From the NCBI GenBank assembly GCA_027066255.1, contig JAMOOA010000032.1:1-16495 (forward strand): a stretch of DNA of 16,495 bases, given 5' to 3'. This document shows, piece by piece, positions 1-2,811 of this stretch. Every line of letters starts with the position of its first letter. Positions within the stretch are counted from its first letter, which is position 1. The notes under the pieces are model-generated. The model worked only from the letters and a program-made list of their open reading frames with translations. It ran no database searches and was not told the origin of the DNA. Position numbers and translations under genes: made by a program. Source of the DNA: Candidatus Altimarinota bacterium. Its GTDB lineage: Bacteria > Patescibacteriota > Gracilibacteria > BD1-5 > UBA6164.

Positions 1-2811
1 AACTATGGAACCTGAGCTGTTATGGCCGTTCCAGCGCATGATGAGAGAGATTGGGAATTTGCGAAGAAGTATGATTTGGAAATACGTGATACTATTGCTC
101 CATTTATAGAGATTACCAATGGCACAAGTACACCTAGAAGTGATGAAAATATTGCCAATTTTAGATGTGCAACAGCGATTATAAAACACTGGTCAGAGAA
201 TACCTACTTAGTATTACAGTTTGCAAAAACTGGAGAGTTTGGACTTGTAGGAGGAAAAAGAGAGGAATGAGAAAGTTCAGAGCAGTGTATTTTGAGAGAG
301 ATTCAGGAAGAAACAGGGTACAAGAACTATTCTATTAAAGAGGTAGTTTTTGAAAAGATTTTCGGACGAGGATATAAAGCTAGAAAAGACAGAGAAGAAT
401 TAGCAGATGATACTGTCTATTTTATAGAACTTGAGAATGATGAGATGTCTGAATGACACAGTTGTGACGAACATGACAATATGATTTTTCTATCTCAGAA
501 GGACTTTTTGAAGAAGGTAAGTCTTACTCATCATAAAGTGTTTTTTGAACAATTTCTTTCAAAGAATAAATCATACAGTGCAAAGAATGGAATTCTTTTC
601 AATTCTGGAGAATACAGCTGATTGAGAGGAGACGAAGCAAAGAAAAAGTTTGCTGAGCTTGCAGAACAACAATGATTTGGACATATAAAGACGAACTATA
701 AACTCCGTGATTGGCTGTTTTCTCGTCAGAGATACTGGGGAGAACCAATTCCGTTGATACACTTAGAAATGAGTCAAGTAAAACAACTTCCTCACATCTC
801 AGATATATCTCAGGCAACAGATGAAAATATTGCTTATATACTCAAAAGAGCACCAAAAGATGGAGAAGAGGTAAGCGATGGTATGACTTGTTGAGGCAAA
901 GTGAGAGAACTGATTATTGGAGGAAAAGTATTTTCAAAGATATATGATGGGCTCTATGGGAAAATAGTATGTGACTATCGTCTCCCTCTGGAACTTCCAG
1001 AAGTAGAGGCTTATGAACCAGCTGGGGATGGGCAGAGTCCTCTTGCGAAAGTAGATGATTTTGTACAAGTACAGCTTGCAGATAACTTAGTTGGGAAAAG
1101 AGAAACCAATACAATGCCTCAGTGGGGTGGAAGTTGTTGGTATTACCTTAGATTTATGGATAGTAAGAATCCTGATGATTTAGTAGGAAGTGAGATGGAA
1201 AAATACTGGGAAAGTGTGGATTCGTATGTCGGAGGAGCAGAACATGCGGTACTTCATCTCCTGTATGCACGTTTTTGGCATAAGTTTCTTTTTGATATAG
1301 GAGTCGTTTCTACTACTGAACCATTTTATAGACTCAGAAATCAGGGAATGATTCTAGGAATGAGTTATAAAACAGCTGCAGGAAAACTCATCGCAGATGA
1401 TATGGTAGAGGAAAAATGAGGAAAGTATTTTGAAAAAGAAACAGGTGAAGAACTGGAAAAAGTCCCAGCAAAGATGAGTAAATCACTGAAAAACGTTATT
1501 AACCCAGATGATATTGTCCAAGAATATGGAGCAGATACTCTCAGGATGTACGAGATGTACATGGCTGATTTCAAGGATGCAGCTCCATGGGATACAAGCT
1601 CGATTGTCTGAGTAAAGAGATTCCTCGATAGAGTTTCAGCACTCTTTCTTGAGGGAAAGGAGCGTAACGCAAAATCTGACGATGAAGCGATGAAAGTTCT
1701 CCATAAGACTATCAAAAAAGTCGGAGAAGATATAGACAATTACAAGTTCAACACGGCTATAGCGCAGATGATGATTTGTATGAATACAGGAGAACCACAA
1801 GATGCTGAGAAAAAAGCTCAGTGGAGGAAAATATTTATCATTCTGCTGCATCCATTTGCTCCGCATATAACAGAGGAATGTTGGGAGAAACTTTATAACT
1901 CACTCCCAACCCCTCTCTTTACAATAGAGGGGAGTAGGAAGTATAAGAAGATCTATTTTGCGACGGGAAATGTATCTAAAATAGAGAGGGCTCAGAAGTT
2001 ATTGAATAAGCTTGATCCTAGTATAGTTATAGAGAAATACCAAAATATCATAGAAGTGGAAGAGACAGCAAAGACATCTTTAGAATGTGCGCTTCAAAAG
2101 CTGGAAGTATATAAATGAGTAGAAATAGACGCACCTATTGCTGTTGCAGATACGGCTGTATATTTCGAAGATGCTGATTTTGATTTTGAACCAACAAAGG
2201 TGAAAAGAACAGCTCTAGAGCTTGTAGGAAAAAAAGAATCAGACCTTAGTGTTGAAGAGGTTGCTGAACTAATGATTGATTATTATCAGGCTCGAGCAAG
2301 AGACGCTGGAGGGAGTATAGATTATTATTATGTTGATTCTTGGGCTATACTGTATCCAGATGGAAACATAAAAACATATGAATATAGGAGAGAGTATACA
2401 CTTACTGATACCAGAAAAGGAGAACTTAAACCGTATTTCCCGATGGCAAACCTCTATGTTTCTAAATATACAGGGAAACGTTATCATGAATCTACAGATG
2501 AAGATTTCTTCATAGAGTTTGCAGGTCAAACTGAAGCGCTTTCTGAACTCTTCAACTATGGAAGAGAATCTATCTTCTTTGCTGATTGGCCAGAGTATGA
2601 TGAAAAATTGGTAGTAGATGATGAAGTCACTATCGGAGTACAGGTTCTTGGGAAACTCAGAGGAGAGATACAGATATCAGTTGATGAATCAAAAGAGAGT
2701 GTCTTACAGAAAGCAAAAACTAATGAAAATGTTGCAAAATGGCTCGAAGGGAAGGAGCTTGTAAAAGAAGTATATGTTCCAGGAAAGATAGTGAACTTAG
2801 TAGTAAAATAG
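1..2811 (+). CDS. leuS: Leucyl-tRNA synthetase with embedded Nudix and HAM1-like domains (5' partial)
   Basis: Class Ia synthetase that charges tRNA-Leu in the cytoplasm. The frame is open from base 1 to TAG at 2809-2811 (936 residues) only if TGA is Gly. Numbering is from base 1. The fragment begins inside the CP1 editing domain (GTGAVMAVPAHDERD, first TGA at 13-15). It continues through the DWLFSRQRYWGEP block, the HLLYARFW region, the KMSKS loop at residues 491-495, the anticodon-binding helix HPFAPHITEE, and the C-terminal VDDEVTIGVQVLGKLRG block. Two insertions are absent from ordinary LeuRS: a Nudix domain (about residues 45-195) and a HAM1/ITPase-like domain (about 645-850). A short in-frame palindromic element (residues 635-645) lies just before the second. 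The HIGH motif and N-terminus are upstream of the window. The secreted-protein gene follows after 28 bases. Identity as LeuRS is secure. Confidence 0.96.
133..560 (+). other. Nudix hydrolase domain inside the LeuRS CP1 region
   Basis: Between the editing motif VPAHDERD and the GILFNSGEY segment, where LeuRS normally has a short linker, there are roughly 150 extra residues. They carry a perfect Nudix box, G-x5-E-x7-REIQEETGY, at residues 85-107. One glycine within it (residue 90, TGA at 268-270) comes from the reassigned codon. The segment opens with a strand-rich stretch (ATAIIKHWS, YLVLQF, FGLVGGK) and continues past the box with strands, as in the Nudix fold. Nudix enzymes hydrolyse nucleoside diphosphates linked to another group. 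All metal-binding Glu positions of the box are present, so activity is plausible. The substrate cannot be read from sequence. I have an unverified recollection that similar insertions occur in other CPR LeuRS. Confidence 0.9.
1902..1935 (+). repeat. Palindromic element, in frame within leuS
   Basis: An imperfect hairpin (arms cccctct at 1910-1916 and agagggg at 1926-1932, flanked by actccc and agt) that closely matches the element at 5655-5690: both share the sequence cactcccaacccctctc on the left and agaggggagt on the right. It is translated as LPTPLFTIEGS and lies exactly at the boundary between LeuRS and its HAM1-like insert. The length keeps the frame open. Confidence 0.75.
1936..2556 (+). 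other. HAM1/ITPase-like domain inside the LeuRS anticodon-binding region
   Basis: About 205 residues separate the helix ending EECWEKLYNS from the resumption of LeuRS at SIFFADWPEYDE. The insert begins KKIYFATGNVSKIERA, the T-G-N-x-x-K substrate loop typical of HAM1/RdgB/ITPA non-canonical purine NTP pyrophosphatases. It continues with EETAKTSLECALQK (family pattern E-x-S-x-E-x-A-x-x-K) and PIAVADTAVYFE, which resembles the EDT catalytic-Asp motif of human ITPA more than the bacterial ADDSG. Its length is close to a full ITPase. The usual C-terminal FGYDP and SHR signatures are not recognisable, so the fold is likely but activity is uncertain. One TGA (2116-2118) lies within it. Confidence 0.72.

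What the first reader, a model, noticed from the sequence alone, without database searches (positions are those of the whole stretch)
1936..2556. HAM1/ITPase-like domain embedded in LeuRS anticodon-binding region
TGN-x-x-K loop, ECALQK pattern and an ADTAVYF motif mark a non-canonical purine NTP pyrophosphatase-like domain of near full length. With the Nudix insert this LeuRS carries two nucleotide-sanitising folds. Inference: removing ITP/XTP or dNTP analogues close to the synthetase's ATP site, or a structural role in tRNA binding. The C-terminal FGYDP/SHR motifs are missing.
Basis: partly seen in the sequence, partly recalled or inferred. Interest (0 to 1): 0.8.

Follow-up and report, generated by a model that had tools for sequence, protein, structure and literature searches.

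The report
Nucleotide-cleaning enzyme domain inside leucyl-tRNA synthetase
A bacterial enzyme that loads leucine onto its tRNA carries, in one surface loop, a whole extra enzyme domain of the kind that destroys faulty nucleotides, and related bacteria have linked the same sort of domain to the same enzyme more than once, which hints at a partnership that is not yet explained.

Summary

The domain belongs to a distinct HAM1 subfamily. Six catalytic-core residues are kept in 40 of 40 sequences, but the base-contacting SHR motif of ITPases is missing in 40 of 40. So it is probably a nucleotide pyrophosphohydrolase, but not a standard ITPase.

The subfamily is repeatedly tied to LeuRS in Patescibacteria: in the anticodon-domain loop; at the start of the CP1 editing domain in nine other LeuRS; and freestanding close to leuS in two genomes whose LeuRS are sisters of fused ones. 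Some LeuRS also carry Nudix, HAD, serine-hydrolase or nucleotidyltransferase inserts.

Function is inferred: LeuRS-coupled nucleotide clean-up. An uncoupled passenger in permissive loops is the main rival. Nine searches of an open-access library listed no paper on this, judged mostly by titles.

The parts
1..2811 (+). leuS, leucyl-tRNA synthetase, 5' end cut off by the contig start; table 25; stop at 2809-2811
   Evidence: Open frame of 936 aa under table 25; TIGR00396 E 1.1e-149, 500.1 bits, under the 548.4 cut-off, the N-terminus being missing; in G000 the strong leuS_bact matches all lie in this frame, the others are weak
109..591 (+). Nudix-domain insert in the CP1 editing domain (Nudix box GGKREEGESSEQCILREIQEETGY)
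   Evidence: PF00293 E 1.2e-9 at P0001 70-172; similar Nudix inserts in LeuRS of relatives and a freestanding relative in G043
1899..1942 (+). palindrome-like stretch CCCCTCT...AGAGGGG at the upstream junction of the insert, translated in frame (NSLPTPLFTIEGSRK)
   Evidence: Read; predicted hairpin of 7 pairs but only z -1.04; similar stretches sit in the same loop of relatives
1936..2559 (+). HAM1/ITPase-fold domain inserted in the anticodon-binding domain
   Evidence: PF01725; family profile 1942-2559; AF2 plus Foldseek/VIA
1963..1980 (+). TGNVSK loop: Asn657, Lys660 (triphosphate loop of HAM1 enzymes, role recalled)
   Evidence: N and K in 40 of 40 subfamily rows and 8 of 8 canonical rows
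2062..2064 (+). Glu688, catalytic-core acid (role recalled)
   Evidence: 40 of 40 and 8 of 8
2098..2100 (+). Lys700 of ECALQK
   Evidence: 40 of 40 and 8 of 8
2149..2151 (+). Asp717 of ADTAVYF, catalytic-core acid (role recalled)
   Evidence: 40 of 40 and 8 of 8
2206..2208 (+). Arg736 of PTKVKR
   Evidence: 40 of 40 and 8 of 8
2389..2391 (+). Arg797, subfamily-specific arginine (canonical rows have C, I, T or Y)
   Evidence: 39 of 40 subfamily rows, 0 of 8 canonical
2437..2478 (+). FPMANLYVSKYTGK, region aligned with canonical FGYDPIF or GIPLSSVF ... K; no SHR downstream
   Evidence: Pro814 40 of 40 (5 of 8 canonical), Lys826 39 of 40 (7 of 8 canonical); the string [FM]P[MLVI]xx[LIF]Y in 29 of 40 and 0 of 8

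Best explanation
The feature is a complete HAM1-fold enzyme domain inserted in frame into the loop between the last anticodon-domain helix and the following strand of LeuRS. It belongs to a HAM1 subfamily that keeps the catalytic core but has lost the base-contacting SHR motif and gained a conserved arginine. Most likely it is an active nucleoside-triphosphate (or related nucleotide) pyrophosphohydrolase with changed base preference, and its work is tied to LeuRS: it removes a nucleotide that would be misused by, or would inhibit, leucine activation, so that LeuRS carries a nucleotide-cleaning site besides its amino-acid editing site. Shown here: predicted fold, conserved catalytic residues, purifying selection, repeated association with LeuRS. 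Inferred: catalytic activity, substrate, and coupling to aminoacylation.
Against: No activity has been measured and no substrate is known. Five of the seven freestanding members whose surroundings I read are not next to leuS (G042 about 8 kb away; G365 and G224 on short contigs). The same LeuRS loop also takes palindrome-like repeats, and other LeuRS loops take unrelated enzymes, which fits uncoupled insertion. 195 of 379 Patescibacteria genomes show no PF01725 at E <= 0.001, so the activity is not generally needed.
Confidence: 0.52

Rival explanations
1. Uncoupled passenger. The domain is an active nucleotide pyrophosphohydrolase that does its ordinary cellular work; LeuRS is only a carrier, because its surface loops tolerate insertions.
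For: The same loop holds palindrome-like repeats in G027, G040 and G042 and a similar stretch in G028; G027 has a second such repeat elsewhere in the same leuS frame. LeuRS of relatives also carry Nudix, HAD_2, PF06821 serine hydrolase and a nucleotidyltransferase. In the fused family genomes the insert is the only HAM1 found, so it may simply be that cell's HAM1.
Against: The HAM1 domains found embedded in LeuRS come from one subfamily, apart from the second HAM1-like stretch of G355, although canonical HAM1 is commoner (184 of 379 genomes have PF01725). The subfamily also sits close to leuS as a separate gene in two sister lineages.
Confidence: 0.3
2. Self-protection: the domain, like the Nudix and hydrolase inserts, destroys nucleotide-like inhibitors of LeuRS (agrocin-84 type Trojan horse compounds) or toxic aminoacyl-nucleotide by-products at the place where they act.
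For: LeuRS is a known target of such an antibiotic, and a self-immunity synthetase exists (PMC5059758, title and abstract start seen in the listing). In G638 the freestanding gene has an S66 peptidase gene upstream (that S66 includes the microcin-C immunity peptidase MccF is recalled) and leuS one gene downstream. SHR is lost.
Against: Only one genome shows the S66 neighbour. No producer, transporter or resistance gene set was looked for. HAM1 enzymes attack the alpha-beta phosphoanhydride, which TM84 lacks (both recalled).
Confidence: 0.08
3. Catalytically idle structural module that shapes tRNA(Leu) or C-terminal domain contacts.
For: It sits in the anticodon-binding domain before the C-terminal part. 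The base-contacting SHR is lost.
Against: Six catalytic-core residues in 40 of 40; the same subfamily sits at a second LeuRS site and as freestanding proteins; 33 family genomes do without it.
Confidence: 0.05
4. Ordinary ITPase/XTPase (RdgB function) that happens to be fused to LeuRS.
For: HAM1 fold and catalytic core; only HAM1 found in the genome.
Against: SHR, part of the ITPase specificity pocket (PMC5075207, passages), is absent in 40 of 40 rows, against 6 of 8 canonical rows that have it, and a new arginine is fixed in 39 of 40.
Confidence: 0.08

Closest known systems
RdgB/HAM1/ITPA family (PF01725; E. coli RdgB, T. maritima TM0159, human ITPA)
   Same: Fold over the full length, TxxNxxK loop, catalytic Glu, Lys, Asp and the following Arg
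   Different: No SHR (0 of 40 rows) and no FGYD at the aligned place; new Arg797 (39 of 40); own clade (97/91); embedded in LeuRS or near it in part of its members
Bacterial leucyl-tRNA synthetase with CP1 editing domain (TIGR00396, PF13603)
   Same: KMSKS, HVGH and PAHDxRD motifs in full-length relatives; KMSKS and part of the editing domain in the window
   Different: Carries extra enzyme domains (HAM1, Nudix, elsewhere HAD, serine hydrolase, nucleotidyltransferase) in loops. PMC13114784 (passages seen) treats the editing domain itself as the insert; its main text has no hit for HAM1, ITPase or Nudix
Isoleucyl-tRNA synthetase with N-acetyltransferase domain (NCBIfam NF040702 ileS_w_GNAT)
   Same: A class I synthetase carrying an extra small enzyme; known to me here only as a library entry that appeared
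   Different: Different synthetase and different enzyme; an acetyltransferase, not a nucleotide hydrolase
Maf/HAM1-like protein of cassava brown streak viruses, partner of the viral RNA polymerase
   Same: HAM1-type protein coupled to an enzyme that uses NTPs (PMC8893687, title and abstract start seen in the listing)
   Different: Plant RNA virus; partner of a polymerase, not of a synthetase
KomB of the KomBC complex (anti-phage role recalled)
   Different: Part of a helical complex; no LeuRS link known to me; a shared fold only

Membership tests
HAM1 family (PF01725) | Match above the curated Pfam cut-off | tested here: met
   26.5 bits against 22.5 for the cut-out domain; 30 of 30 members of A1 match at E <= 1. 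The match covers profile 1-71 of 186 only
HAM1 family (PF01725) | ITPase-type fold over the whole length | tested here: met
HAM1 family (PF01725) | Catalytic core N..K, E, K, D (roles recalled) | tested here: met
   40 of 40 subfamily rows, 8 of 8 canonical rows
ITPase proper (RdgB/ITPA, TIGR00042) | SHR signature of the base pocket | tested here: not met
   0 of 40 subfamily rows, 6 of 8 canonical rows
ITPase proper (RdgB/ITPA, TIGR00042) | FGYD-type motif | tested here: not met
   The window reads FPMAN there. No subfamily row shown has it at that place; one string FGYD in G018 is at the domain's very end. Weak criterion: only 3 of 8 canonical rows have FGYD-like letters
ITPase proper (RdgB/ITPA, TIGR00042) | Score above the NCBIfam cut-off | tested here: not met
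   P0001 20.5 bits against 145.35
ITPase proper (RdgB/ITPA, TIGR00042) | Hydrolysis of ITP, dITP, XTP to monophosphate and pyrophosphate | not testable with these tools
   Needs an enzyme assay
ITPase proper (RdgB/ITPA, TIGR00042) | Homodimer | not testable with these tools
   Single-chain prediction only
Bacterial LeuRS (TIGR00396) | Score above the equivalog cut-off | tested here: inconclusive
   Window frame 500.1 bits against 548.4, cut at the contig start; 12 of 13 genomes searched have a match over the cut-off, the window's own genome being the exception
Bacterial LeuRS (TIGR00396) | KMSKS motif and CP1 editing domain | tested here: met
   KMSKS at P0001 491; PF13603 E 2.1e-17
Nudix hydrolase (second insert) | Nudix box GX5EX7REUXEEXGU | tested here: met
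   GKREEGESSEQCILREIQEETGY read in P0001; PF00293 E 1.2e-9; the box pattern is recalled
Maf family | Closer to Maf than to HAM1 structures | tested here: inconclusive

The most novel reading that the evidence does not exclude
In Patescibacteria LeuRS has become a docking hub for nucleotide-processing enzymes. A dedicated HAM1 subfamily, in some lineages with Nudix, HAD, serine-hydrolase or nucleotidyltransferase domains, joined LeuRS several times to form a substrate-side quality-control layer: besides editing the wrong amino acid, the synthetase destroys the wrong nucleotide (or its own nucleotide by-products or inhibitors) on the spot. G355 LeuRS, 1,795 aa with two HAM1-like, one HAD, one Nudix and one nucleotidyltransferase-like insert, would be the extreme case.
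Probability: 0.25. Interest if true: 0.9.

Novelty: new variant of a known kind. Interest (0 to 1): 0.7.

Why it matters
Quality control in aminoacylation is known for amino acids and tRNA; I know of none for the nucleotide substrate (recalled, not searched). A HAM1 subfamily that keeps joining one synthetase makes a testable case that such a layer exists, or else that LeuRS is an unusually open landing site for enzyme domains. Either answer bears on how very small genomes build multi-enzyme proteins. It also gives a function lead for a HAM1 subfamily whose members carry at best names such as 'hypothetical protein' in the database rows seen (one short row is named inosine/xanthosine triphosphate pyrophosphatase family), and shows that such LeuRS, where named at all, are named plain leucine--tRNA ligase or leucyl-tRNA synthetase.

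Tried and rejected
Assembly artefact or chance fusion: rejected, because the insert recurs in 11 family genomes and 12 database LeuRS.

Intein or homing element: not supported; the domain is a HAM1 fold with conserved catalytic residues, and freestanding relatives exist. No dedicated intein search was made.

Viral origin: a viral-contig scan with three peptide patterns gave no confirmed relative; this is a limited test.

One insertion event for all: the domain tree rejects all LeuRS-embedded rows as one clade (p-AU 4e-96; the group was partly chosen after seeing the data). For the anticodon-loop type alone a single origin is not rejected (p-AU 0.159 on the domain tree, 0.228 on the LeuRS tree). 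G019 stands apart from the other anticodon-loop rows in all three trees: with G005 in the LeuRS trees (97/95, where insert columns were partly included and two changes are forced; 97/92), only weakly (80/39) in the domain tree. The group table counts one change because insert-less rows were left ungrouped there. Several LeuRS rows have long branches, and the program warned that P0042 and G608 join by long branches. G427 was labelled CP1 by its Nudix-HAM1 order, its frame being cut by the contig end.

Palindromic repeat as the vehicle of insertion: left open. My genome pattern found nothing, but it does not match the copy in the window either, so that result is uninformative; the window hairpin is weak.

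Structure of the whole LeuRS with its insert: not modelled, because models return no coordinates here, so distances between active sites cannot be measured.

Correction made on re-checking: I had taken the loss of FGYD as typical of the subfamily; one search shows that 5 of 8 canonical rows lack FGYD-like letters too, so the argument now rests on SHR and Arg797. Two further loops (G031, G043) were read. I lowered the best explanation from 0.55 to 0.52 and raised the passenger rival from 0.28 to 0.30 for the FGYD point and for the capped list.

Display limit: one of the 18 rows of A2 was lost because two rows shared a label; no count rests on it.

Full report
WHAT IS THERE. Read with table 25, the window begins inside a leucyl-tRNA synthetase frame that runs to the stop at 2809-2811, 936 aa with nine in-frame TGA codons. 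The window is the whole contig, so the N-terminal part is lacking. Two foreign domains interrupt the frame: a Nudix domain in the CP1 editing domain (PF00293, P0001 70-172, E 1.2e-9) and a HAM1-like domain after the anticodon-binding helices (PF01725, P0001 651-722, 23.0 bits, cut-off 22.5). A profile of relatives extends the second to window 1942-2559, positions 2-204 of 205.

ACTIVE SITE. In an alignment of 40 subfamily rows with 8 canonical HAM1 rows from Patescibacteria, Asn657, Lys660, Glu688, Lys700, Asp717 and Arg736 are the same in every row of both sets. SHR is in 0 of 40 subfamily rows and in 6 of 8 canonical rows. Arg797 is in 39 of 40 and in 0 of 8. FGYD-like letters are absent from the subfamily at the aligned place in the rows shown, but only 3 of 8 canonical rows have them, so that loss is not special. 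In human ITPase SHR marks the specificity pocket and its arginine is thought to touch the ITP base (PMC5075207, passages seen; similar in PMC8833965, passages). I infer a working pyrophosphohydrolase with a different base preference. In five genome pairs the insert has dN 0.11-0.22, with dS 0.8-2.1 in four and saturated in the fifth, much as the LeuRS part. dS is near saturation, so this only indicates purifying selection.

DISTRIBUTION IN THE FAMILY. Of 48 family genomes, 14 match the insert query: 11 in leuS (all genomes of genera g1, g5 and g6), two as freestanding genes (G006, G042) and one (G046) by the LeuRS tail alone. The leuS loop could be read in 33 further genomes, all without the insert; four (G001, G004, G010, G036) gave no LeuRS C-terminus. 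Insert-less loops are mostly short (LWERIGNKESIFF), a few have palindrome-like or other stretches of up to about 35 aa. In the 11 fusion genomes the insert is the only PF01725 match, while 24 of 48 genomes have any; some of the 11 are incomplete (68-98%). Ten of them have one leuS_bact locus over the cut-off and the window's genome has this truncated one; in G014, G015 and G017 the gene is split between contigs; the other matches are weak and I take them for related synthetases.

FREESTANDING GENES NEAR leuS. I read the DNA around seven freestanding members. In G380 the gene lies about 220 bases upstream of leuS on the same strand. In G638 it lies upstream of leuS on the same strand with one gene between (about 1.5 kb). 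In G042 it is about 8 kb from leuS on the same strand. G006, G365, G504 and G224 show no leuS nearby (G365 and G224 contigs are about 6 kb; in G224 the neighbour is a gene that I read by eye as glycyl-tRNA synthetase). On a LeuRS tree from columns filled in at least 85% of rows, the G380 enzyme is sister to fused G397 (100/100) and the G638 enzyme to fused G682 (100/99). On the domain tree G397 and G380 are also sisters (96/88). So what looks like the same gene is inside leuS in one lineage and beside it in the next.

HOW OFTEN DID IT HAPPEN. The subfamily's 40 rows separate from canonical HAM1 at 97/91; the second HAM1-like stretch of G355 falls with the canonical rows on a long branch. Holding all LeuRS-embedded rows as one clade is rejected (p-AU 4e-96), so joining or release happened more than once. 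Within the anticodon-loop type G019 stands apart, strongly in the LeuRS trees and weakly in the domain tree, but one origin is not rejected (p-AU 0.159 and 0.228). Direction, insertion or release, cannot be told from these trees.

HOW IT MAY WORK. Shown: predicted fold, kept catalytic core, lost SHR, repeated LeuRS link. Inferred: a nucleotide pyrophosphohydrolase that cleans nucleotides in LeuRS's service. The strongest counter-view is that LeuRS loops accept insertions freely and the domain is an ordinary passenger: the same loop holds palindrome-like repeats and other LeuRS loops hold other small enzymes. The repeated appearance of one HAM1 subfamily rather than the commoner canonical form (184 of 379 genomes have PF01725; the match list is capped, and its listed rows show no frame over 766 aa) and the gene neighbourhoods argue against pure chance, but close neighbourhood rests on two genomes of seven. 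Whether IleRS or ValRS carry such inserts was not tested. Two protective or structural rivals and the plain-ITPase reading are listed with lower weight.

LITERATURE. Searches of the open-access library: LeuRS with Gracilibacteria 2 papers (on genetic codes by title); at least three of synthetase, domain insertion, Nudix, ITPase 0; LeuRS with Patescibacteria 0; synthetase, candidate phyla radiation, insertion 8, none on this by title; at least three of LeuRS, inserted domain, editing domain, Nudix 2, of which PMC13114784 was searched by terms and its passages read: no HAM1, ITPase or Nudix in its main text; at least three of HAM1, ITPase, fused, synthetase 2; LeuRS, Nudix, fusion 5, unrelated by title; further searches on RdgB structures and on LeuRS inhibitors. 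Subscription papers are mostly not held, so absence from print is not shown.

VERDICT. Observation confirmed; interpretation partly supported; a new variant of known kinds (HAM1 enzyme plus LeuRS) with an unexpected recurring partnership.

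Noticed in passing
window 109-591: Nudix insert in the CP1 editing domain with an intact Nudix box; similar inserts lie in LeuRS of several other genera of the family, and G043 has a freestanding Nudix 43% identical to it.
   Followed up: partly
L198:677-6061: G355 LeuRS frame of 1,795 aa carries five inserted enzyme-like domains: HAD_2, two HAM1-like, Nudix and a PF10706-like nucleotidyltransferase.
   Followed up: partly
L199, L200: Serine hydrolase PF06821 (RBBP9-like) inserted in the zinc region of LeuRS of G608 and G682; the window has two freestanding PF06821 genes (3918-4484, 7732-8295), and G006 and G042 have one beside the freestanding HAM1 gene (the G042 one read by eye).
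   Followed up: partly
L206, L207, L208: Three genomes (G608, G482, G692) have a frame of about 760 aa joining a canonical FGWD-type HAM1 to a protein that looks by eye like IMP dehydrogenase or GMP reductase.
   Followed up: no
window 1899-1942; L049, L057, L070, L053, L055: Palindrome-like stretches (CCTCACCCC..CCCTCTCC..GGAGAGGG type) are translated in frame in the same LeuRS loop in several genomes; G027 (L049) has a second copy elsewhere in the same leuS frame.
   Followed up: partly
window 13290-13450 (ORF 13107-14102): A similar peptide (SPSSRGKPAEQEGE) interrupts a FemAB-like protein (by eye) just before GYYKKFIPP, compared with the homologue in L158; such repeats seem to be tolerated in coding genes here.
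   Followed up: no
window 10026-11996, minus strand: By eye a C5-cytosine DNA methyltransferase next to a possible restriction endonuclease; not searched.
   Followed up: no
P0039: This LeuRS has an additional stretch (LHFYNQQAWNKIMSGKKTVETR...) in its zinc region that resembles an ASCH domain by eye; Pfam did not report it at E <= 0.01.
   Followed up: no
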